Positions 35,724 through 45,343 of a DNA stretch of 64,000 nucleotides are shown here, in pieces. The notes under the pieces are model-generated. The model saw nothing but the letters and a program-made list of their open reading frames with translations, had not been told where the DNA came from and did no database searches. Source of the DNA: Formosa agariphila KMM 3901 (GTDB taxonomy: Bacteria > Bacteroidota > Bacteroidia > Flavobacteriales > Flavobacteriaceae). Position 1 is the stretch's first letter; each line of letters begins with the position of its first letter. The stretch is taken from positions 3,813,507 through 3,877,506 of the forward strand of contig NZ_HG315671.1 in assembly GCF_000723205.1 (NCBI RefSeq). Direction: 5' to 3'. The position numbers were made by a program, and so were the translations under genes.

Positions 35724-37904
35724 TTAAGAATTATTTTGATTGTTCTGTAAATTTTGCATGATGCGATTACTTTGTTCAGTTTTACCCTGACCTTGGTAAA
35801 TTAAGGCTAATAAATACTGGTAATCCTGATTGTCTGGCAATAGTTTTACAGCTTTTAATATCACGTGTTCTGCTTCGGTAAACTTTTTATTCTGATAATA
35901 AAATGTTGCCAAATTATACATAGATCGCGTATCTGTAGAATCTATTTTTATGGCTTGATTTAAATCGGAAACAGCCTGTTCGTTCGCTTTGATTTCAAAA
36001 TTTAAAAGGGCTCTTAAATAATAAGCTCGTCCAGCATTTGGTTCTTTTCTTAACCATGTATTTAACGTACTTAATGCCAATTCTGAATTCCCTTTTAAAC
36101 TATATGCTGTTGCTAAATTAGAATACACTGGTAGCAATAAACTGTCTTTCTTTAACGCTAATTCGTAATTTTTTATAGCATTATCAGGATCATTATTCTG
36201 AAGATAATAATCGCCCAATTGTAAACGTCCTGTAGAGAAATCTGCATTGGTAAACATCATGGTTTCTAGCTCATGTCTCGCTTTACTAAGTTCTGACTGA
36301 TTAATTGTTGCTAAAGTTTGAGCATCAATTCCTGTTAACAATTGCATGGCTCCTATTCTAACCAAACGTGTGGTATCGCTTAAATGCTTAGACGCGATAA
36401 ATACACGGTCCTGTGGACTTATATTTCTAAATTTCTGAAGCGCATTAAAGCGAACCATTGGAGAAGGATCTTCCAGACTTTTTAGAATAACCTCAAACTG
36501 TTCGTTATTTGTAATATCTATATTCTCAATTACTGTAGCTCTTGCAATTGCTGGATAATCTAGATTATTAATAAATGTATCTAACCCCATGCGTTCTTGT
36601 ACACTAATATTAGATTTATTACTAATTAACAATTGATCTGAATAATGATCTAATCGGTCTGGACCATACCATTCTACTACCTGCTTTGCTGCCCATTCAT
36701 CAGATTTATCTTGATGACATTGCGTACACGCATTTGGTGTTCCATATTCTACACTTTGGTCTGGTCTTGGCACTCTAAAACTATGATCACGTCTAAAATC
36801 GTTCCCCATATAAACAGCTCCCGTCATGTGGCAATTTACACATTGTGCACCATCTGTTTCTGCTTCATGAAAATGATGAGAAGGTTCGTTATAGTTAGGA
36901 GTATGACATTGTAAACATAATCTATTGTCTGTATACTTTGTTTTTAAAGTGTGTGGATCGTGACAATCGGAACAGGTCACGCCTTCATGATACATTTTAC
37001 TTTGAAGAAAAGACCCATATACATAATCTTCATCTTCAATTTGTCCATCGCCATGATATAAATCGTTGGTTATATTTTGAAGTAGATATTGGTCTTCAAA
37101 ATGAGTTCCAGGAATCATTTTTTCTGTTAAACGCGCACGTCTGGCATGACAAGGTGCACACATATTCATCTGGCTAAACTGAGAGTTTCCTGGAATGATA
37201 TACGTGTTTTCGGTATGTGTACTATCTTGAATATTATTTGCCCAATACACATGACGCTCTGCAGGACCATGGCAACTTTCGCAACTCACATTAATTATAG
37301 AATATTTAGTATCGTAACTATCGGTTTCAACATTATAATCCTTTTCTAAGTTTGTTGAGTGACACTCGGCACACATGGTATTCCAGTTTTGAGCGGTCTC
37401 TGTCCAATGCAACCAATCGTGCGGATCTATTTCATCGCCTTTATATTGGTGAAACCATACTCCTTTTTCGGTATCCCAAGTAACACGAAGCACTTGTTTT
37501 CTTCCGCGATCAAAATCTATTAAATATTGCTGAAGCGGTCTTACTCCAAACGCATAACTAATTTCATAATCAACCTCACTGCCGTCTATTTCTTTAACAT
37601 GAACCATAAATTTATCATCTTCCGATCTTGTAAAATGATAAGACACGCCATCAATAATAGTTTTTACATTATTAAAATCGCCTAAAATTGTAGAATCATT
37701 AGCAACTTGCATGGCTAAATCGTGATCTGAACCTCTCCAATCATCATACACCCCTTTATGGCATTCCATACATTGAGAATCTCCAATAAAACCATCTTTA
37801 TGTTGTAGTTTTAGATCCTCTATGGCAACATAATCTGACTGTTTCGTTTTGGAATTACAAGCCGACAGTACGACCAAACAGACAACCCAAAAAACATGCT
37901 TCAT
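35724..37904 (-). CDS. Octahaem c-type cytochrome lipoprotein with HEAT and TPR repeats
   Basis: A 726-residue envelope lipoprotein (signal ends VLSAC). It contains eight CxxCH haem-binding motifs in the first 400 residues: CMECH, CAECH, CESCH, CAPCH, CSDCH, CLQCH, CVNCH and CTQCH. The middle (about 440-530) has HEAT-like repeats and the end (about 545-720) has four or five TPR repeats. Its haem spacing is close to cytochrome c554/NrfB-like multihaem proteins. The combination of octahaem and protein-protein repeats suggests a periplasmic or outer-membrane electron-transfer scaffold; the donor and acceptor are unknown. The aldo/keto reductase gene follows it. Confidence 0.9.
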   Translation of the reverse strand: MKHVFWVVCLVVLSACNSKTKQSDYVAIEDLKLQHKDGFIGDSQCMECHKGVYDDWRGSDHDLAMQVANDSTILGDFNNVKTIIDGVSYHFTRSEDDKFMVHVKEIDGSEVDYEISYAFGVRPLQQYLIDFDRGRKQVLRVTWDTEKGVWFHQYKGDEIDPHDWLHWTETAQNWNTMCAECHSTNLEKDYNVETDSYDTKYSIINVSCESCHGPAERHVYWANNIQDSTHTENTYIIPGNSQFSQMNMCAPCHARRARLTEKMIPGTHFEDQYLLQNITNDLYHGDGQIEDEDYVYGSFLQSKMYHEGVTCSDCHDPHTLKTKYTDNRLCLQCHTPNYNEPSHHFHEAETDGAQCVNCHMTGAVYMGNDFRRDHSFRVPRPDQSVEYGTPNACTQCHQDKSDEWAAKQVVEWYGPDRLDHYSDQLLISNKSNISVQERMGLDTFINNLDYPAIARATVIENIDITNNEQFEVILKSLEDPSPMVRFNALQKFRNISPQDRVFIASKHLSDTTRLVRIGAMQLLTGIDAQTLATINQSELSKARHELETMMFTNADFSTGRLQLGDYYLQNNDPDNAIKNYELALKKDSLLLPVYSNLATAYSLKGNSELALSTLNTWLRKEPNAGRAYYLRALLNFEIKANEQAVSDLNQAIKIDSTDTRSMYNLATFYYQNKKFTEAEHVILKAVKLLPDNQDYQYLLALIYQGQGKTEQSNRIMQNLQNNQNNS

Positions 37905-37965: not shown

Positions 37966-38026
37966 AAAAAACAAACGCTAAATATCCCTTATAATTATTA
38001 TAAATTACAAGACACATTTAGCGTTT
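37966..38026 (-). terminator. Terminator upstream of the cytochrome gene
   Basis: On the minus strand AAACGCTAAAT pairs with ATTTAGCGTTT (11 perfect pairs, 32-base loop), followed by GTTTTTTC. It lies 21 bases beyond the ompA tail fragment at 38048. It could be the original terminator of ompA, left behind when extra DNA was inserted. Confidence 0.6.
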
Positions 38027-38047: not shown

Positions 38048-38131
38048 AAATAAATCGTCTAAATTTCATTTAGAAGTTTAGAAATTTCATCTAATTTAGG
38101 CGTTAAAATAACTTCTATTCTTCTGTTTTTA
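38048..38131 (-). pseudogene. Orphan ompA 3'-end fragment A
   Basis: Minus-strand reading gives KNRRIEVILTPKL then DEISKLLNEI and a stop codon, identical in protein to the C-terminus of the intact OmpA-family gene at 44381-45343. At the DNA level it differs at eight sites in 73, all synonymous. The match extends about 11 bases past the stop codon (same ATAAATCGT flank). There is no start and no upstream gene sequence. It is not a functional gene. Confidence 0.85.
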
Positions 38132-38184
38132 ATTTCGTTTATAAGATAAATTATAACCGAATCGATAAGCAATACCCAAGTTTC

Positions 38185-40821
38185 TTACAACGAAAATCTA
38201 ACTTTCACTAACCCTTGTCTTGGTCTTAAAGCAAAATTAGATTCTATATAACTAAAGCTATCTACTATTGCGGTTAGATAATTTTTATCATTAAATAGAT
38301 TATTAATCTGAAACTCAAAATCAATTTTTTTCTTTTTCCAAGTGTATCTATATACCACATCGGCAAAAATATTTTCTGCCCGCCTGTTACCTAAATTACT
38401 TTTCACATATTCGGTTTTTATACCAAAATAATGATGTTCTTCTGGATAGACATTGACATTAAATTCATGAAATTGTTGAACTATAGTTTGATTGTCTTGA
38501 TTCTGAATGTGATTGTTCGCAAACTGAAACACACTTACTAATTCTGTATTTAACCAATCGGTAACATCTGTATCTATTTTACCGTTTAATCGCCAATTTT
38601 CATTAGAGATATCTGTTATTTCTGAATTCAATATTTGTTGAAAATCCTGTAAATTAAAATTAACACCTAAGGTTAAGTTAGTGTTTAATTTACTAAAATA
38701 CTTGCTTGCCCTTGTCATAAAATTATGATTTAAACGTGTATTATCTTGTTCTATAGCCTGTAGTTCTGTTGCCCCATTCTCTAGTATATTATTGTTGAAC
38801 AAAAGATTAGTATTTGTTTTAGTATGGCTGTAAACCGAACTAAAGAAAAAGGATTTAATTGGATTTCTATAACTAAACGAGGTAGAATAACCCCAATTTC
38901 GATTTTCAGGCAAGGGAGCGTCTATACGTTGAATACTACGGTAATTCTGTAATATATAATTGTAGTAAACCTGATTAATTGTGCCAAAATCATTATTTAA
39001 ATGTGCTGATGTTGACAAACTCCAGTTCGAGGTTAAATCGAAAGTTAAAGAAATTCGTGGATCAAAAGTTATACGGCTTAGGTTTTGATTTCTACTCAAC
39101 GATTCATCTTCTAATTGATAAGTGTGGATATTAATAGGTGTATGTAATTCTATGCGCCACTTTTCCGATTTGTATTGTGTTTGTAAAAGCGCATAGAATT
39201 TTGAACGTATCCAAGCTAAATTATTTTTAAATATTTCGTTATTAACTATGTTTGAAGTAAAAATTCCACTTTCCAAACGTTGCTTTTCAAACAGCACACC
39301 TAGTTTTGGCGACAAACTAAATTTTTTGTAACCTTTTGTAAAGCCTATAGAGTTATTTGTATAGAATGTATTAAGCTCCAAATTTTGAATTACTTCATTA
39401 TACGGTAAACCACCGTTTAATAAATCTTCAAACTGTCCTGGGTTTACAGTTAATGTCTGTGGCGTTCTATTAACACCAATATAAGATTTTAAAGTTGCAA
39501 TTTGTTTCCCTAAAGGAAATAAGGTTTTTAAATTGTTAGATAATTTGAAGTAGCGATTACTTAAACTTTGACTAATATTTTCATTGTACTGTTGAATACT
39601 ACCACGCTCACTATCCCAAAACCCTTGAACAACTAAACTATTTTTAAAGTAGTTTTTATTACTATTTCTTTGGATGGTTAAATTAGTTTCTAATGAATTT
39701 TTATAAAACTGATTATATTTATTTTCAAACAACGAAATGGTATCGTTTGCAGTGAAAAACTGCGTATTTGTAAAACCGTTTTGTTGCTGATAATCATTAA
39801 GATAGGACACATTTAGACGTAGCTCTAAATCCTTTTTTAACTTCTGTAAATAATTAGCGCTTAGTAAATTAATATTATTATCTAACCAACGTTGCTCCGG
39901 AAAATTTGGAACACCAATTTTTTGAATTGCTAACCAATCTTGCTTTTCGTTATTGCGTTCAAATTGATCTAATAAATCTTCAATAGTTAAGGTTTTTAAT
40001 TGTGATGCAACATTATCACCGATGTTATTAGATTGATAAGAACTAAGCATTTGTCGTTTTTTAGAAAATAGCATTGGGGTAATATTCGTATCCCAGAGTA
40101 ATGGCTCCGAGCCTGCACCTAATTCGGCTTGCCCTGTAAAGGTATACTTGTTTTTAAGCTTAATATTTAAAGCTGCTTGATCCGAATACACCAAACTATC
40201 CAGAACTTTAATAGGCTGATGATTTTCTAAAACTTGTACCTTGCTAACTTCTTTATGCGGCAAGTTTTCATTTGCAAGATTATATTTCCCTTCAAGTAAA
40301 TCTAAGCCCTCAATATAATATTTGTTAATAGGTTTACCTTGGTAGAGTATTTTACCGTCACTAAGAACCTCAATTCCTGGCATATTTTTTAGAACATCGG
40401 CTATGGTTCTATCTTCTTGTTTTGTAAAGGCATTAACCGCATAATTTATAGTGTCTCCATGCTTCGTAATAGGACTATTTTTTATAACAATCTCATTTAA
40501 CTCCGTAGGTGCTTCTACTAAAATAAAATCTAGTGTTTGGCTTTTGTTTAAAATAGTTTTAACAACCGATTTATAGCCCATAGACTTAATGTTTAGCTGT
40601 ATATTTTCAGCATAACCGTTTACAGGAATTGAATAATAACCTTTACTGTTAGAAATGGCATAATTTAAAATTTGGTCTGAATGTAACGGTGTAATAGTAA
40701 TACTTGCACCAGAAACAGGCTTACCATTTTTAGTTAACAACAAGCCATTAATATTAGATTGCGAAAACATGTCACAAATACTAAATAAAACGATAGTTAA
40801 ACAAAAAATAGCTTGATGCAT
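38185..40821 (-). CDS. TonB-dependent receptor-type outer-membrane protein with carboxypeptidase-regulatory domain
   Basis: An 878-residue protein counted from the ATG at 40821, which gives a standard signal peptide (MHQAIFCLTIVLFSICDMFSQ). A TTG 13 codons upstream was not used. A carboxypeptidase-regulatory-like beta-sandwich (SGASITITPL near residues 38-47) is followed by a plug-like domain (HGDTINYAVNAF, ADVLKNMPGIEVLSDGK near residues 117-160), then a barrel of about 600 residues ending KVRFSL. The plug's DTINYAVNAFT with PHKEVSKVQVLENH is typical of the GLPGLI-associated receptor group. It is downstream of the GLPGLI gene, and the pair occurs together widely. Ligand unknown. Confidence 0.85.
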   Translation of the reverse strand: MHQAIFCLTIVLFSICDMFSQSNINGLLLTKNGKPVSGASITITPLHSDQILNYAISNSKGYYSIPVNGYAENIQLNIKSMGYKSVVKTILNKSQTLDFILVEAPTELNEIVIKNSPITKHGDTINYAVNAFTKQEDRTIADVLKNMPGIEVLSDGKILYQGKPINKYYIEGLDLLEGKYNLANENLPHKEVSKVQVLENHQPIKVLDSLVYSDQAALNIKLKNKYTFTGQAELGAGSEPLLWDTNITPMLFSKKRQMLSSYQSNNIGDNVASQLKTLTIEDLLDQFERNNEKQDWLAIQKIGVPNFPEQRWLDNNINLLSANYLQKLKKDLELRLNVSYLNDYQQQNGFTNTQFFTANDTISLFENKYNQFYKNSLETNLTIQRNSNKNYFKNSLVVQGFWDSERGSIQQYNENISQSLSNRYFKLSNNLKTLFPLGKQIATLKSYIGVNRTPQTLTVNPGQFEDLLNGGLPYNEVIQNLELNTFYTNNSIGFTKGYKKFSLSPKLGVLFEKQRLESGIFTSNIVNNEIFKNNLAWIRSKFYALLQTQYKSEKWRIELHTPINIHTYQLEDESLSRNQNLSRITFDPRISLTFDLTSNWSLSTSAHLNNDFGTINQVYYNYILQNYRSIQRIDAPLPENRNWGYSTSFSYRNPIKSFFFSSVYSHTKTNTNLLFNNNILENGATELQAIEQDNTRLNHNFMTRASKYFSKLNTNLTLGVNFNLQDFQQILNSEITDISNENWRLNGKIDTDVTDWLNTELVSVFQFANNHIQNQDNQTIVQQFHEFNVNVYPEEHHYFGIKTEYVKSNLGNRRAENIFADVVYRYTWKKKKIDFEFQINNLFNDKNYLTAIVDSFSYIESNFALRPRQGLVKVRFSL

Positions 40822-40875
40822 TAATAAACAGTAATTACTTGTTCTTGCTTTATTTTTCAAGGAATTGATGATTAA

Positions 40876-40920
40876 CTAACAGTAAATAAGAATAATACAT
40901 TTATCAAAAAAAAAAAAAAA
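40876..40920 (-). repeat. T15 homopolymer tract with shared downstream motif, copy 1
   Basis: On the minus strand fifteen T (40920-40906) are followed by GATAAATGTATTATTCTTAT and TTACTGTT. The tract is 85 bases before the receptor start codon. A similar T15 plus TATTCCTATTCTACTAGTT occurs at 42204-42218. Candidate slippage-prone site. Confidence 0.6.
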
Positions 40921-40955
40921 GATCAAACTAATAAACTCCTATTTTACTAGCCAGT

Positions 40956-41756
40956 TTATAATTCAATTGGGTTATTCCTTTTTTTCAATTTCTGTTTCAC
41001 CCCTTCTTTATAGTCATCCTTTATTGTAAAACCCGATTGTGCTATTCTTTCTATTATATTTTTCTTGTAATCTTTTAACTTTTCAAAATAGATGGGTTTG
41101 GTTGTAATAAAAAGGTCTTTTCCTGGTTTTAAATTTGAATAAATTAAGTTCATATCAGATTTAGCAATTAATTCAAATACATAATGATTTTTTAAATCCG
41201 AAATCTTAACAATGAGACCAGGTAAACCACTAAACTTGTACGGTCCATCAGAGATTGGGATTTCATTAGAAAACCAAGCTTCATAATTTCTACCCCCATA
41301 ATAGGTCGTAGCCTTCTGACATTTAAGACCATTTATTGATAACGTATCGGTGGTTATACTCCATTTCATTCCATTCTTCTGTTCTTTATACTCAAAATTA
41401 TCTGTATATATTTTATCATAAACAGTTATGCTATCTTCTTTCTTTTCTTTTAATATTTTAAAATGAAATTGAGTTTTTGGAAATCTTGAAATATCTAGCA
41501 TACCAATTTCTGCGGCAGGCTTATTTTTTATATCAAGAAGTATTGAATCTTTTAAATAAGTGTTTTCACTTAGAAATATTGAAACCTCATCATTAGTTAA
41601 GAGCAACATGTCTTCACTTTGTTTGGCATAAACATCTGTAGAATCTGATTGATATGTTAGCCTATAAGTGAATGTATGCTGTATAACATATTTATTTTGA
41701 GTCTGTATACTTAGAGAGGTCAAAAAAATAATAAAGAACATGAATTTATAAAACAT
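40956..41756 (-). CDS. GLPGLI family protein
   Basis: A 266-residue secreted protein with a signal peptide (about 20 residues, MFYKFMFFIIFLTSL then SIQTQ). The family motif GLPGLI is at about residues 177-182 inside GPYKFSGLPGLIVKISD. The domain is beta-rich and is found in Bacteroidota next to TonB-dependent receptors, as here; its biochemical role is unknown. It lies 65 bases after the small cysteine-rich peptide gene and 134 bases before the receptor. Confidence 0.9.
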   Translation of the reverse strand: MFYKFMFFIIFLTSLSIQTQNKYVIQHTFTYRLTYQSDSTDVYAKQSEDMLLLTNDEVSIFLSENTYLKDSILLDIKNKPAAEIGMLDISRFPKTQFHFKILKEKKEDSITVYDKIYTDNFEYKEQKNGMKWSITTDTLSINGLKCQKATTYYGGRNYEAWFSNEIPISDGPYKFSGLPGLIVKISDLKNHYVFELIAKSDMNLIYSNLKPGKDLFITTKPIYFEKLKDYKKNIIERIAQSGFTIKDDYKEGVKQKLKKRNNPIEL

Positions 41757-41821
41757 ATTATGTAAACTGTTAGTTTTAAAGTTATCCGCCTATAAAAACA
41801 AGCAGGTAACCGAATAATTAA

Positions 41822-42025
41822 TTAAGGGCATAGCGCTTCATCTGCCGCCAAAGCCTTTTCAATAATTTCTGTGGTTGACTCTCCACAAGACCAGCCCTCT
41901 ATACCACAAGAAAGCGTTGTAGGCACGCAATTATAATCTTCTTCTGCTGCATCTACAGTACTATTATTTGCAAAACTAATGGCAGCACCTAAGACAAATA
42001 CTAATGTTAAAATTACATTTTTCAT
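41822..42025 (-). CDS. Small secreted cysteine-rich peptide
   Basis: A 67-residue protein. Residues 1-19 form a signal peptide (MKNVILTLVFVLGAAISFA) with predicted cleavage before NNST. The mature part of about 48 residues is acidic and holds four cysteines at residues 33, 40, 47 and 66, spaced C-x6-C-x6-C-x18-C, which could form two disulphides. Such short proteins occur before GLPGLI/receptor genes in flavobacteria and are related in style to NVEALA-type peptides, but I do not recognise a named family. It may be a secreted ligand, signal or toxin; this is inference only. Confidence 0.72.
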   Translation of the reverse strand: MKNVILTLVFVLGAAISFANNSTVDAAEEDYNCVPTTLSCGIEGWSCGESTTEIIEKALAADEALCP

Positions 42026-42051
42026 TTTAAATAAAATTAGATGGTTAAAAA

Positions 42052-42081
42052 ATAAATTAGTTATTCATTTTTCCTAGTCAA
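42052..42081 (-). promoter_or_regulatory. Candidate promoter of the cysteine-rich peptide gene
   Basis: On the minus strand TTG at 42081-42079, 19 bases, then TAATTTAT at 42059-42052. This matches the flavobacterial promoter apart from the last two positions of TAnnTTTG. It is 27 bases before the start codon. Confidence 0.5.
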
Positions 42082-42171
42082 TTTATCCATCTACTTTTAG
42101 AATACCTATTTACTTTTTTATTTCCATAAGTTGGATGGTCACTAAATGGCTCTATTCGTTAACAAACTAAA

Positions 42172-42218
42172 TACAACTAGTAGAATAGGAATAACACTTT
42201 TCCAAAAAAAAAAAAAAA
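42172..42218 (-). repeat. T15 homopolymer tract with shared downstream motif, copy 2
   Basis: On the minus strand fifteen T (42218-42204) are followed by GGAAAAGTGTTATTCCTATT and CTACTAGTT. The tail resembles the sequence after the T15 at 40920-40906. The tract is about 180 bases before the peptide start. Confidence 0.6.
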
Positions 42219-42371
42219 TGAGAAACAAAAATAAATTAACCATTAAAACAATAAATTAATTAAAAATTAAATTAAATATTAGATTTAATTAATCTACATC
42301 TTGTGATAAAAAACCATAAAGAATACGTTTACCATAGCTTTTTTTTACTTTTTATAGACTAAAAACAAACT

Positions 42372-42410
42372 GAGTTCACTAATTCCGATACAACCAGAAA
42401 AAGTGAACTC
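42372..42410. repeat. Inverted repeat in the accessory intergenic region
   Basis: GAGTTCAC at 42372-42379 and GTGAACTC at 42403-42410 form an eight-pair arm with a 23-base loop. It could be a weak terminator for minus-strand transcripts from the ompA side. There is no strong T-run directly after it. Confidence 0.35.
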
Positions 42411-42435
42411 AAATAAACAAAACCAAAATCTACTC

Positions 42436-42535
42436 CTAAATCTCATTTAAAAGTTTAGAAATCTCATCTAATTTAGGTGTTAACACCACTTCAATTCTTC
42501 TATTTTTAGCGCGACCTTCAGCAGTTGAATTTGAG
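42436..42535 (-). pseudogene. Orphan ompA 3'-end fragment B
   Basis: Minus-strand reading gives NSTAEGRAKNRRIEVVLT and then PKLDEISKLLNEI plus stop, matching the C-terminus of the intact OmpA-family protein with only one change (Val for Ile). The DNA is about 88% identical (12 differences in 100), mostly synonymous. Unlike fragment A the sequence after the stop is not shared with intact ompA. No start codon or upstream gene is present. Confidence 0.85.
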
Positions 42536-42592
42536 CCCGATAACGCGGTCTTATAGTCCGTGCCATAAATATATTATTAAATCGGTAACCCC

Positions 42593-42665
42593 CGCTACCG
42601 CACGAACCCTTTCGTGTGGTTTATTCTAATTTAAATCCTAAAATACAACCATATTGTCAATTAAA
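42593..42665 (-). repeat. Interspersed repeat, copy 1 (short form)
   Basis: On the minus strand this carries ATTTAAATTAGAATAAACCACACGAAAGG and the end CGTGCGGTAGCG, shared with the copy at 43632-43735. It lacks the 23-base middle part of copy 2. Both lie just downstream of a secreted-protein gene, in the same orientation. Confidence 0.7.
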
Positions 42666-42696
42666 CCTTATTCCCCTGCATAACCCTAATCTAAAA

Positions 42697-43395
42697 CTAC
42701 TCATCCACCACACGTTGCAACCGTACAGTAGTACCATTTTTATTTTTTACTTCTAGATATTTACGCCCTTGTTTTACAATTTCTAAAGTATCTGTTTGAT
42801 TCAATATTGGTAATCCCTCACCTTGATTTTGCATAAAAACAGAAATCTCATAATTATAATTTCTATCAACTATGAGGTTATATGGTTTATACCCTAAATT
42901 GGACAACATAAATTGTAGATTATTTTTTTCTTTTTTAAGCCTAAAAACAGCTACACCGCTATTATTAGCAGCAACACCACTATAACCATATTTTGACAAA
43001 CTATCCTTATACATTACACTTGCTGCGGGAGGATCTAGCACTTTATGATTTAAATCGAACAAAACAAATTTTATGCAAATTGAATCTTTATTATTTCTCC
43101 AAATTTTGGAGATATGATATCCTATTTTTATTGGTTCTGTTAAATCGTAATTCAAAATTAATGAATCGTTTTTTATTTGATAATGACCTTTACCATATTT
43201 ATCATCACCCAAACTCGCTCCTGAATGGTACTCAAAAATTCCATTTTTCTTAAAATCAAAGAAATTATAATGCTCTTGATTAGGCATTAAATTACTATAT
43301 CTTCCTTCAATACTTTTTTGTCCATAAAACTGACTAAATGAACATAAAATGAATATTATAAAAACAGACTTAATCACACTTCGTTCCTTTCGCAT
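42697..43395 (-). CDS. Secreted protein, candidate immunity-type partner of the adjacent toxin-tip fragment
   Basis: A 232-residue protein if it starts at the ATG at 43395; an in-frame ATG four codons earlier would give 236. The signal sequence is SVIKSVFIIFILCSFSQFYGQ. A lipocalin-like N-terminal half (EGRYSNLMP, NGIFEYHSGASLGD) is followed by a second beta domain with GYKPYNLIV. Its start overlaps the end of the coding fragment at 43370-43633 by 26 or 38 bases in another frame, which suggests translational coupling. I do not recognise a named family. The pairing resembles toxin C-terminus plus immunity gene, but no toxin activity is shown. Confidence 0.6.
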   Translation of the reverse strand: MRKERSVIKSVFIIFILCSFSQFYGQKSIEGRYSNLMPNQEHYNFFDFKKNGIFEYHSGASLGDDKYGKGHYQIKNDSLILNYDLTEPIKIGYHISKIWRNNKDSICIKFVLFDLNHKVLDPPAASVMYKDSLSKYGYSGVAANNSGVAVFRLKKEKNNLQFMLSNLGYKPYNLIVDRNYNYEISVFMQNQGEGLPILNQTDTLEIVKQGRKYLEVKNKNGTTVRLQRVVDE

Positions 43396-43633
43396 TGCTA
43401 TTTCCATTTTGCTCGTTTGTTAATGTTTTTGAGATATTTTGTCTATCGATTAATTCAGGAACCAAAGCTTTAAAAGCATCCGTTTCAGTAACAATATTAC
43501 CATTAGAATCCACTTGAAATAACCCTCCTAAAGCCATGCTTCTATAATAATCCCACCCCAAATCACCACCTGTTCCATATTCAATATCCCATGTTAACAA
43601 AGACATAGCAATTGCATCAACATACTGTCCCAT
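43370..43633 (-). pseudogene. Truncated C-terminal coding fragment (candidate toxin tip)
   Basis: An open frame of 87 residues that begins directly at the edge of the interspersed repeat, so its upstream part is missing. Reading MGQYVDAIAMSLLTWD to NISKTLTNEQNGNSNAKG then TKCD, it looks like the end of a larger protein. It shares a pattern with the fragment at 44229-44370: FY/YY-x3-A-x-x-GL, then DAF/DAY-K and a Cys near the end. In similar flavobacterial proteins the end of a zinc-peptidase-like polymorphic toxin has this look (recalled, not checked). No complete domain is present. Confidence 0.55.
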
Positions 43634-43735
43634 AAACCACGCTACCGCACGAAATCGCAGATTCAGCGTAGCTAATCCTTTCGTGTGGTTTATTCTAATT
43701 TAAATCCTGAAATACAAACTACATTCTCAATTAAA
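43632..43735 (-). repeat. Interspersed repeat, copy 2 (long form)
   Basis: On the minus strand this contains ATTTAAATTAGAATAAACCACACGAAAGG, a 23-base central part (ATTAGCTACGCTGAATCTGCGAT) and TTCGTGCGGTAGCGTGGTTTAT. The two ends form an imperfect inverted repeat (AAACCACACGAAA against TTTCGTGCGGTAGCGTGGTTT). Copy 1 is at 42593-42665. It ends at the start of the truncated fragment 43370-43633. Confidence 0.75.
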
Positions 43736-43831
43736 ACCAAAATTCCATTAATACTATAACAAACATAATTTTATTGTAGATACACGATGCAATCGCGCAC
43801 TAGCGGGTTACCTACTCAATTTCAGTAGTAT

Positions 43832-44239
43832 TTATTCTATTAAATAACTTGGCTCCAATTCTATTATAGAATCTCCTTTAATTAGATAAATTGATTTTTC
43901 CTTAAAATACATATACAACTCCCAATCGTCAATAACGCTAGTATTATTTTTCCCACTATAAAATTGTCTGCTTTTCAAAATATCTTTAACACAAATTGGG
44001 TTAATTTTATTTTTCAAGAGTTTCTTTTTATTTTGTTTAAAATAAAAAAAACCATTATTCCCACTATTTTTTAAATAATAATAAGTATAGTTTTCATAGT
44101 TGTGTTTCTTTTTAACTAAAAGTTTTCTATCATATTTTAAGTTTAGGGTATCCTTCTTATGTATATCTATTTGTGAACTAACTGCAAAACTAAAGCTAAA
44201 CACAAAAAGTACAAGTAAAAAAATCTTTCTATTGAGCAT
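43832..44239 (-). CDS. Small secreted protein, candidate immunity-type partner
   Basis: A 135-residue protein with a signal peptide of about 21 residues (MLNRKIFLLVLFVFSFSFAVSS). The mature part is basic and aromatic (YENYTYYYLKNSGNNGFFYF) and ends in acidic residues. The start codon overlaps the end of the coding fragment at 44229-44370 by 11 bases in another frame. A small, single-domain, secreted protein coupled to a fragment of a larger gene is the layout of a toxin-immunity unit, but its family is not known to me. Confidence 0.6.
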   Translation of the reverse strand: MLNRKIFLLVLFVFSFSFAVSSQIDIHKKDTLNLKYDRKLLVKKKHNYENYTYYYLKNSGNNGFFYFKQNKKKLLKNKINPICVKDILKSRQFYSGKNNTSVIDDWELYMYFKEKSIYLIKGDSIIELEPSYLIE

Positions 44240-44370
44240 CTTTACAGTCTTTAGTTAAAAAATCAATATCCATATCAACAGCCTCCAACTGTGCTATTTT
44301 ATTAGAGTCAATATCTTTATAAGCATCCACATTATGTTCTTTTAGGCCCCTCCAAGCGAGTACCTCGTAA
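44229..44370 (-). pseudogene. Truncated C-terminal coding fragment directly behind ompA
   Basis: Reading from the ompA stop towards lower coordinates gives, in one frame, FYEVLAWRGLKEHNVDAY and then about 28 more residues (SNKIAQLEAVDMDIDF to KDCKDAQ) before a TAG at 44229-44231. There is no start; the frame runs out of the ompA tail and its 3' flank. The sequence resembles the fragment at 43370-43633, so both may come from the same family of larger proteins. It is too short to have been listed as a gene. Confidence 0.55.
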
Positions 44371-44380
44371 AATAAATCGT

Positions 44381-45343
44381 CTAAATCTCATTTAAAAGTT
44401 TAGATATTTCATCTAACTTAGGAGTTAAAATCACTTCTATTCTACGGTTTTTAGCACGCCCTTCAGCAGTTGAATTTGAGGCTATTGGCGCATATTCTCC
44501 GCGACCTGCTGCCGTTAAATTCTCTGGATTTATCCCTTTATTTTCTCTTAAAATATTCACGATAGCCGTGGCGCGTTTGGTCGATAAATCCCAGTTTCCA
44601 GATAATTGTCCGTTACCTTTATAAGGCACATCGTCTGTATGGCCTTCTATAAGTACCGCAATATCTGGGTTTACAGATAACACACTTCCTAATTGCTCTA
44701 CTGCTCTACGCCCCTCTGTACCTACAGCCCAACTTCCCGAACTAAACAAGAGTTTGTTTTCCATAGAAATATAGACTTTTCCATCACGTTGCTCTACAGT
44801 TAACCCTTGGCCTTCAAAATCGGTTAAGGCTCTAGAAATCGCATCTTTTAACGCAAGCATAGTCGCGTCTTTTTCTGCAATAACACGTTCTAATTCCGCC
44901 ACGCGATTTGAACGGGATTGTAGTTCTTTTTTTAATTCTTCTAATCTGTTATTTTCTGCAGCTAGAGCTTGCTCTTTTGCTTCTAACTGCGCTAATAACT
45001 CTCTGTTTTGCTGTACGTTTTTAGCAATAGATTCTGAGCTATTTTTTTCTAAAGCCTCATAAGAATCTTGTAAATGTTGATGGTTAGATTTTAACGCATC
45101 AAAATCATTTTGAAGTCGGTCGCGTTGCGCCAATGTTTTATCGTAATTTGTCTGAAGTTCTGCCAAATCTCCTTCTAATTGCGTTTTAGCAGCAGATAAT
45201 TCAGCATTCTCATCCATCAACGATTGATTTTCTTGCTTTAAAGCGTCATGCCTCGTTTCTAAATCTTTATAAACTCTAGGCGCTACACACGATGTGGTTG
45301 CAACCATTATAGATAATACCGATACTATTAATTTGTAATTCAT
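44381..45343 (-). CDS. OmpA-family peptidoglycan-binding lipoprotein
   Basis: A 320-residue lipoprotein from the ATG at 45343 (a TTG at 45358 is less likely). Signal sequence ends TTSC at residue 19. Residues 25-170 form a long coiled coil (many Leu, Glu, Gln). The C-terminal OmpA domain (about 185-310) has IEGHTDDVPY near residues 222-231 and the peptidoglycan-binding NWDLSTKRATAIV and GRAKNRRIEV motifs. It anchors the envelope to peptidoglycan. Its 3' end is duplicated twice downstream (42436 and 38048), see findings. Confidence 0.9.
   Translation of the reverse strand: MNYKLIVSVLSIMVATTSCVAPRVYKDLETRHDALKQENQSLMDENAELSAAKTQLEGDLAELQTNYDKTLAQRDRLQNDFDALKSNHQHLQDSYEALEKNSSESIAKNVQQNRELLAQLEAKEQALAAENNRLEELKKELQSRSNRVAELERVIAEKDATMLALKDAISRALTDFEGQGLTVEQRDGKVYISMENKLLFSSGSWAVGTEGRRAVEQLGSVLSVNPDIAVLIEGHTDDVPYKGNGQLSGNWDLSTKRATAIVNILRENKGINPENLTAAGRGEYAPIASNSTAEGRAKNRRIEVILTPKLDEISKLLNEI

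What the first reader, a model, noticed from the sequence alone, without database searches (positions are those of the whole stretch)
38048..45343. Three copies of the ompA 3' end bracket accessory DNA
The last about 100 bases of the OmpA-family gene (44381-45343) occur again at 42436-42535 and 38048-38131 as headless fragments in the same orientation. The fragments encode the same C-terminus (only one Ile/Val change), yet the DNA differs by 8 of 73 and 12 of 100 sites, nearly all synonymous. So the fragments are not decayed duplicates of this gene; they look like ends of homologous genes that were under selection, brought in with new DNA. The layout suggests repeated insertion at a gene 3'-end hotspot, each time restoring the OmpA tail. 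No integrase is visible. The terminator at 37966-38026, just past fragment A, may be the original one.
Basis: partly seen in the sequence, partly recalled or inferred. Interest (0 to 1): 0.75.

Follow-up and report, generated by a model that had tools for sequence, protein, structure and literature searches.

The report
Accessory DNA stacked behind ompA tails
Foreign genes have apparently been added at least twice just behind a conserved outer-membrane gene of a marine flavobacterium, each addition bringing its own copy of the gene's last stretch and leaving the old stretch behind as a scar, and scars of the same kind are seen at a nearby gene in related bacteria.

Summary
The ompA 3' end recurs at 42436-42535 (B) and 38048-38131 (A) as headless same-strand fragments. 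Differences are species-like: 8 of 72 nt (A; no amino-acid change) and 12 of 99 nt (B; one), reached by random substitution in 0 of 20,000 simulations each. Four of five same-genus genomes show the empty site: ompA, terminator, cytochrome gene. A keeps that ancestral terminator, so A is the original ompA end. The fifth (G004) has cargo at the same spot, 941 bp of it 99% identical to the window's, without any ompA tail: a donor-like state. A nearby gene, rng, shows the same architecture in four other genomes; two resolve, at family level, into a single-occupant 'before' and a single-occupant 'donor-like' state. No integrase or transposase was found among the stacked-insert proteins tested. Best reading: incoming DNA recombined through homology in the conserved gene on one side and closed inside the recipient gene's tail on the other, stacking cargos and leaving tail scars. 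That resembles homology-facilitated illegitimate recombination and Rhs/T6SS tail displacement, but the anchor gene's product is constant. Joint microhomology and the true donors are unproven. New variant of a known kind.

The parts
44381..45343 (-). intact OmpA-family gene; by the model its head is recipient DNA and its tail came with the last insert
   Evidence: Pfam OmpA E 2.4e-17; 74-83% aa identity to the five same-genus orthologues
44229..44380 (-). 11 nt shared with fragment A, then a headless C-terminal fragment (YEVLAWRGL...) of a secreted-protein family
   Evidence: matches residues 407-447 of a 452-aa protein of a Gelidibacter array (46%, E 3e-10)
43832..44239 (-). 135-aa secreted-looking protein, partner gene of that fragment
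   Evidence: 29% identity, E 8e-11 to a 134-aa protein of the same Gelidibacter array; no Pfam or NCBIfam family
43628..43722 (-). hairpin repeat, copy 1
   Evidence: among the six genomes of the genus found only here and in G004, each time in this interval; fold z -3.57
43370..43633 (-). headless C-terminal fragment (87 aa) related to the end of a 461-aa protein of G004
   Evidence: 65% identity to residues 382-461 of the G004 protein
42697..43407 (-). 236-aa secreted-looking protein, partner of that fragment; a 100% aa identical copy in G004
   Evidence: 941 bp at 99.0% DNA identity with the G004 insert
42536..42630 (-). hairpin repeat copy 2 plus a REP-like palindrome that ends where fragment B begins
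   Evidence: 77 nt at 94.8% identity to G004; palindrome found once in the own genome, 2 mismatches allowed
42436..42535 (-). headless ompA tail B (scar of the later insertion)
   Evidence: 88% to ompA; 9 synonymous and 1 non-synonymous codon changes
42363..42410 (-). terminator-like hairpin behind B, resembling a sequence behind ompA in G004
   Evidence: local score 41 with G004 against 30 for the next of 97 loci; 0 of 2000 mononucleotide shuffles reach it, best shuffle 39
41822..42025 (-). 67-aa secreted-looking small protein
   Evidence: ORF; no Pfam or NCBIfam hit
40956..41756 (-). GLPGLI family protein
   Evidence: TIGR01200 E 1.3e-48
38185..40860 (-). 891-aa outer-membrane receptor-like protein with a carboxypeptidase-regulatory-like N-terminus
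   Evidence: Pfam PF13715 E 3e-7, just under its curated cut-off; 'receptor-like' is recalled, not tested
38048..38131 (-). headless ompA tail A plus 11 nt of 3' flank: the original ompA end
   Evidence: 89% to ompA; its 3' flank scores 129, 122, 95 and 54 with G001, G002, G003 and G005 against 27 or less for other loci
37966..38026 (-). ancestral ompA terminator
   Evidence: orthologous in G001, G002, G003; fold z -8.35
35724..37904 (-). multihaem cytochrome / TPR gene, the ancestral downstream neighbour
   Evidence: starts 142-154 nt behind ompA in G001, G002, G003 and G005; Pfam

Best explanation
The interval behind ompA was filled in at least two steps by DNA from other Flavobacteriaceae. 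In each step the incoming molecule carried the end of the donor's ompA plus whatever followed it there. It paired with the recipient ompA through that shared sequence, so the gene stays whole but ends in the donor's tail. The cargo's far end joined inside the recipient's own ompA tail, with little or no homology. The displaced tail, with its terminator, is left as a headless scar. Order: first the small protein-GLPGLI-receptor block with tail B (leaving A), then the secreted-protein array with the present tail (leaving B). Shown: the empty site, A as the original end, ortholog-like divergence of the tails, a cargo-bearing ompA end without scar in G004, no recombinase among the cargo proteins tested, and the same architecture at rng in four genomes. 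Inferred: one-sided homologous anchoring, direction and order of events, natural transformation as route.
For: Empty site in 4 of 5 same-genus genomes. A's 3' flank matches those four and no other locus. G004: about 4.8 kb between ompA and the cytochrome gene, 941 bp of it at 99% DNA identity to the window cargo while OmpA is 81% (aa), and no ompA tail there. B's 3' flank fits G004 best of 97 loci. The three tails differ like species of the genus do (8-10 of 72 nt; pairs of G001-G005 6-16) and almost only synonymously. Recurrence: rng tail plus terminator duplicated around inserts in L043, L085, L116 and G063 = L219. In L219 the scar runs on at 92.5% identity for 3.4 kb into the sole occupants seen in sister L066, and the proximal cargo (astacin-like protease) has its relative as sole occupant in L055, 56% aa identity over 375 residues. 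In L116 the distal block (DUF5004 lipoprotein) has its relative as sole occupant in G427 (56% aa), and the proximal AHH-nuclease block has its relatives as occupants in G422 (46 and 41% aa for two of its three proteins; no match reported for the third). Scar starts vary: 73 and 100 nt from the stop in ompA; 131, 87, 86, 75 in rng.
Against: The true donor of either ompA tail was not found: the present tail's 3' flank matches no locus (best score 27). Joint microhomology could not be measured, because no donor sequence runs across a joint; at the B joint the G004 sequence differs by a base exactly at the break. Two of four rng scars start at nearly the same A-rich spot (87 and 86 nt), as a fixed site would predict. 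The comEC reading frame of this strain has an in-frame TAG, which argues against present-day transformation unless it is a sequencing error. In the uniform scan tails and heads were about equally common overall (13 and 11); the excess in conserved genes (4 rng tails, no heads) was defined after the fact. ompA scars were seen in only this one of 98 sequences. The donor-like occupants in L055 and G422 are distant relatives, not sources.
Confidence: 0.66

Rival explanations
1. Site-specific integrative elements (phage, ICE or a decayed cis-mobilisable element) target the 3' end of ompA, carry a replacement tail on attP, and accreted in tandem; the integrase genes were later lost.
For: Tail restoration with mostly synonymous change and tandem stacking are what such elements produce (recalled: e14 at icd, CIME accretion). 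The B copy starts with about 21 nt identical to ompA. Two rng scars start at nearly the same place.
Against: No integrase family among the proteins tested: six cargo proteins of the window, four of G004, and eleven proteins lying between rng and akr in L043, L085, L116 and L219 (Pfam; NCBIfam, PHROGs and PADLOC for part of them). Scar starts differ within ompA (73, 100 nt) and within rng (131 to 75). Cargo in G004, L055 and G422 sits behind the gene without a distal tail, which site-specific integration should leave.
Confidence: 0.15
2. RecA-type integration of small circles (as proposed for Rhs tips): a circle made by recombination between tail copies carries a piece of gene end plus cargo and integrates by a single crossover in the gene.
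For: Gives the same final structure; proposed for rhs by Jackson et al. 2009 (PMC2935791, passages seen). In L043 the first part of the scar is more diverged from rng than the rest (alignment), as a crossover inside the scar would leave.
Against: Needs a circle for which there is no sequence evidence; donor-like states lack the second tail needed to make it.
Confidence: 0.13
3. Local tandem duplication of ompA with its downstream DNA, followed by deletion of gene heads.
For: Headless tails without cargo do exist in this genome, e.g. a decayed tail of a 488-aa gene just behind it.
Against: The copies differ by 11-12% almost only at synonymous sites, 0 of 20,000 neutral simulations; B's 3' flank resembles that of G004; part of the cargo is 99% identical to another species.
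Confidence: 0.04

Closest known systems
Homology-facilitated illegitimate recombination (HFIR) in naturally transformable bacteria
   Same: Homologous anchor on one side, non-homologous closure on the other, added DNA, no recombinase
   Different: The original laboratory papers were not read here (seen only as references in PMC5361080 and as abstract openings in the listing); here the process is inferred from old genomic scars, joint microhomology unproven
T6SS effector-immunity stacking in Vibrio cholerae (PMC5361080, passages seen)
   Same: A new module inserts next to a shared gene and pushes an old 3' end downstream; its authors suggest an HFIR-like mechanism
   Different: There the effector gene or domain is replaced; here the OmpA and RNase G/E C-termini stay the same and only the DNA behind them changes
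Rhs C-terminal tip displacement (PMC2935791, passages seen)
   Same: Strings of headless 3' fragments behind an intact gene, each taken to mark an earlier insertion
   Different: In Rhs the tip itself is the variable cargo; its authors propose circular intermediates
Integrase-less hotspots between core genes (PMC5635113, passages seen) and Neisseria minimal mobile elements (recalled)
   Same: Alternative unrelated occupants between the same conserved genes, often without an integrase
   Different: Explained there by double crossover in both flanking genes, which swaps occupants; stacking with tail scars would need another event (inference)
Phage or ICE integration at gene 3' ends (e14 at icd; recalled)
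   Same: The element supplies a diverged replacement tail and displaces the old one
   Different: Needs an integrase and a fixed core; neither was found here

Membership tests
HFIR-type insertion | homologous anchor shared by donor and recipient | tested here: met
   related cargo stands behind the same gene in donor-like and product genomes for ompA (G004) and rng (L055, G422)
HFIR-type insertion | non-homologous or microhomologous closure at the other end | tested here: inconclusive
   joints fall inside the gene tail at variable places; no donor sequence spans a joint
HFIR-type insertion | no recombinase needed | tested here: met
   no integrase or transposase family among the insert proteins tested; ORFs under 60 aa not tested
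HFIR-type insertion | uptake route for linear DNA | tested here: inconclusive
   dprA frame open; comEC frame has an internal TAG
Site-specific integrative element at a gene 3' end | integrase gene in the insert | tested here: not met
   loss after insertion cannot be excluded
Site-specific integrative element at a gene 3' end | same core position at every insertion | tested here: not met
   73 and 100 nt from the stop in ompA; 131, 87, 86, 75 nt in rng, two of them nearly the same
Site-specific integrative element at a gene 3' end | displaced tail at the far end in every carrier | tested here: not met
   G004, L055 and G422 carry cargo without a tail
Rhs/CDI/T6SS tail displacement | headless gene ends left behind an intact gene | tested here: met
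   A and B; also headless ends of a secreted-protein family within the cargo
Rhs/CDI/T6SS tail displacement | anchor gene with a variable C-terminus | tested here: not met
   the OmpA C-terminus is constant
Minimal mobile element | alternative cassettes between the same conserved genes | tested here: met
   no cargo (4), G004-type or window-type cargo behind ompA in six genomes; more than 400 nt in 24 of 49 rng-akr intervals, with six pairs of related occupants found between loci
Minimal mobile element | exchange by double crossover in both flanking genes | not tested
   no close strains available
Integron cassette array | IntI and attC sites | tested here: inconclusive
   no integrase among the window cargo proteins; the hairpin repeats were folded but not scored as attC

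The most novel reading that the evidence does not exclude
Across Flavobacteriaceae the 3' ends of conserved single-copy genes (ompA, rng) serve as recombinase-free landing pads: the gene end itself does the work of an attachment site, cassettes travel as 'gene tail plus cargo', stacks grow by repeated anchoring, and the direct tail repeats (about 75-175 nt, 88-97% identical) allow whole blocks to be lost or re-donated by ordinary homologous recombination.
Probability: 0.3. Interest if true: 0.7.

Novelty: new variant of a known kind. Interest (0 to 1): 0.5.

Why it matters
Many gene-turnover hotspots lack integrases (45% of hotspots encode one, according to passages of PMC5635113), and how new DNA is added there rather than swapped is less clear. 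Headless tails with their own terminators would be a readable scar of such additions: they give the order of arrivals, separate recipient from donor DNA, and let the process be counted in any genome set. The before, donor-like and after states at rng make the idea directly testable.

Tried and rejected
Chance match: rejected (E 4.1e-30 and 1.1e-19 in the whole genome). Decayed duplicate: rejected. tRNA-associated island: no tRNA in the window. REP/RAYT (IS200-like) transposition as cause: a palindrome like the one next to B flanks an IS200-like transposase gene in G103, but the own genome holds a single copy and this would not explain gene tails; left as a side observation. Uniqueness of the hairpin repeat to the genus: not claimed; pieces of it occur in 20 of 397 family genomes, the own one included.

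General excess of tails over heads: not supported. A uniform scan of 107 loci (window not included; two duplicate contigs left out) and 1324 ORFs gave 13 tail and 11 head hits, most in accessory or repeated families; four of the tails and none of the heads belong to rng. An earlier, less sensitive scan had given 9 downstream plus 2 upstream tails and no heads (98 sequences, 1180 ORFs). In two 400-kb samples: own genome 7 tails and 2 heads, G004 2 tails and 3 heads; of the seven own tails four are hits among tandem paralogues and two are insertion-sequence remnants. Rows dropped as chance or not gene tails: short DNA hits of 20-33 nt in L066, L111 and L117; repeats in the flank behind ompA in L043 and L116 and weak protein hits in L062 and L108. 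In one search several loci held under 2.5 kb of downstream sequence (lengths), so a distant tail could be missed there.

Chimerism inside ompA by sliding identity: no informative break. PADLOC and PHROGs searches of ten proteins each: nothing useful (one weak PHROGs hit of unknown function). Searches for printed reports of such scars listed none that fits by title and abstract opening; this is not a full search.
Full report
What is there. The finding's three copies are real, in the stated places and orientation, and are the only strong matches in the genome. The region reads, in transcription order on the minus strand: ompA (45343-44381); a headless end of a secreted-protein family and its 135-aa partner; a hairpin repeat; a second headless end (87 aa) and its 236-aa partner; a second hairpin repeat and a REP-like palindrome; ompA tail B with a terminator-like hairpin of its own; a 67-aa small protein, a GLPGLI protein and an 891-aa outer-membrane receptor-like protein; ompA tail A; the terminator; the cytochrome gene.

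Empty site. In same-genus genomes G001, G002, G003 and G005 the cytochrome gene starts 142-154 nt behind ompA, with a terminator between. A's 3' flank scores 129, 122, 95 and 54 against these four, and 27 or less against all other loci. So A with its terminator is the ancestral end of ompA, and the DNA from about 38132 to 44380 was added.

Nature of the tails. Main-A, main-B and A-B distances (8, 10 and 9 of 72 nt) lie in the range of between-species distances in the genus (6-16 of 72 for pairs of G001-G005), and nearly all changes are synonymous; random substitution gives so few amino-acid changes in 0 of 20,000 simulations for each fragment. Three ompA ends of species-level divergence therefore lie in one genome. 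B's single amino-acid change, Ile to Val, occurs naturally in G001.

A donor-like relative. G004 carries about 4.8 kb between ompA and the cytochrome gene, with a 461-aa protein (weak SprT-like hit, E 4.7e-5, under the curated cut-off) whose C-terminal end is 65% identical to the window's 87-aa fragment, and the 236-aa protein at 100% aa and 99.0% DNA identity over 941 bp. OmpA itself is only 81% identical (aa) between the two. G004 has no ompA tail behind its cargo. The hairpin repeat occurs, among the six genomes of the genus, only in this interval of these two; pieces of it occur in 20 of 397 family genomes. B's 3' flank resembles the flank of ompA in G004 more than in any other of 97 loci (41 against 30).

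The same thing at rng. A nearby conserved gene, rng (RNase G/E), ends towards the same region, with akr (an aldo-keto-reductase-like gene) facing it. In 49 loci with rng and akr facing each other, 24 have more than 400 nt between them (L219 was added because its scar was already known). Four hold a second rng tail with terminator: L043, L085 (Aestuariivivens marinum), L116 (Gelidibacter sediminis) and L219 (G063). In a draw of 120 family genomes, 2 of 119 with a match had a second, headless match (G018 = L043, and G063). Thirteen further non-duplicate loci from the two genera had none, two of them with under 500 nt of sequence behind rng (three of its 16 loci repeat L066, L120 and L116).

Resolved cases. 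L219: after the scar the sequence follows same-genus L066 for 3.4 kb at 92.5% identity (two genes at 98 and 97% aa), where these genes are the only occupants; before the scar lies an astacin-like protease whose relative (56% aa over 375 residues) is the only occupant in Flavivirga rizhaonensis, L055. L116: after the scar a DUF5004 lipoprotein, whose relative (56% aa) is sole occupant in G427; before it an AHH-nuclease protein with partner genes, whose relatives (46 and 41% aa for two proteins) are the occupants in G422. L043 shares the distal lipoprotein (65% aa) but has other cargo and another scar start, so it is probably a separate event. L085 remains unresolved. The donor-like occupants at rng are relatives, not sources.

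Mechanism. A double crossover would swap occupants and leave no scar (inference). Site-specific integration should leave a tail behind every occupant, at one position, and needs an integrase; occupants without a tail, differing positions and no integrase among the proteins tested speak against it. Tested by Pfam were six cargo proteins of the window, four of G004, and eleven proteins lying between rng and akr in the four stacks; only part of these went to NCBIfam, PHROGs and PADLOC. One-sided anchoring in the conserved gene with closure inside the recipient's tail gives the observed layout. It would also explain why insertions are tolerated: the gene is never broken. Direction, order and route are inferred. 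Competence is known in the family (Riemerella; abstract openings in the listing), and one of these abstracts reports Flavobacterium johnsoniae not competent under the same conditions. This strain has dprA, but its comEC frame has an internal TAG.

Cargo. Related secreted-protein arrays occur behind rng in Gelidibacter (L300, L303) and, for the 236-aa family, next to an IS200-like gene behind rng in L049; L049 shows no rng tail. They consist largely of C-terminal ends plus partner genes, like displaced tips of toxin systems; a toxin role is a guess from layout.

Organism. The genome is 4,228,350 bases; from recall this fits Formosa agariphila KMM 3901. The paper looked at gives genome sizes of mostly 3.9-4.4 Mb for Formosa strains and does not print this number (PMC12943765, passages seen).

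Limits. One genome shows the ompA scars; rng scars rest on four genomes, one of them added because of its scar. No true donor, no joint with both parents known, and no unbiased census. Overall, tail and head fragments were about equally common in the uniform scan (13 and 11).

Noticed in passing
L241:17228-17360 (own genome, 2,317,228-2,317,360): Headless, decayed tail (80% identity, with a premature stop) of a 488-aa gene, lying 159 nt behind it by the match and roughly 60-80 nt behind it when read by eye; a possible older scar without cargo.
   Followed up: partly
L228:811-2835 (own genome, near 3,515,092): comEC is split into two in-frame ORFs of 343 and 328 aa by a TAG; real loss or sequencing error.
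   Followed up: partly
L214:5247-5960 (G103): An IS200-like gene (Y1_Tnp; 'RAYT' recalled) is flanked by inverted copies of a palindrome (GCACGGACTACAAGTCCGCG...) close to the one that abuts ompA tail B in the window.
   Followed up: partly
window 38132-38184: The 53 nt between the 891-aa gene and tail A can be read as LGIAYRFGYNLSYKRN-stop, which looks like the C-terminus of another outer-membrane protein, perhaps one more headless tail.
   Followed up: no
L300 and L303 (Gelidibacter, behind rng): Arrays of partly headless secreted-protein genes related to the window cargo, with many internal partial repeats.
   Followed up: partly
L248:709-995 (own genome): Adjacent remnants of two insertion sequences (DDE and IS110-type transposases) whose longer copies lie in the same stretch.
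   Followed up: partly
L264:16261-16320 (G004): A 60-nt, 97% identical tail of a 264-aa gene lies 5.8 kb downstream, beyond two transposase-like genes (by likeness to those in L248) and a UvrD-type helicase; another possible scar.
   Followed up: partly
L043 and L116, flank behind ompA: Short direct repeats (about 40-46 nt) in the 100 nt behind ompA, not part of the gene.
   Followed up: no
L050 (Pontimicrobium aquaticum): 2.6 kb between ompA and akr without an ompA tail; occupant not examined.
   Followed up: no
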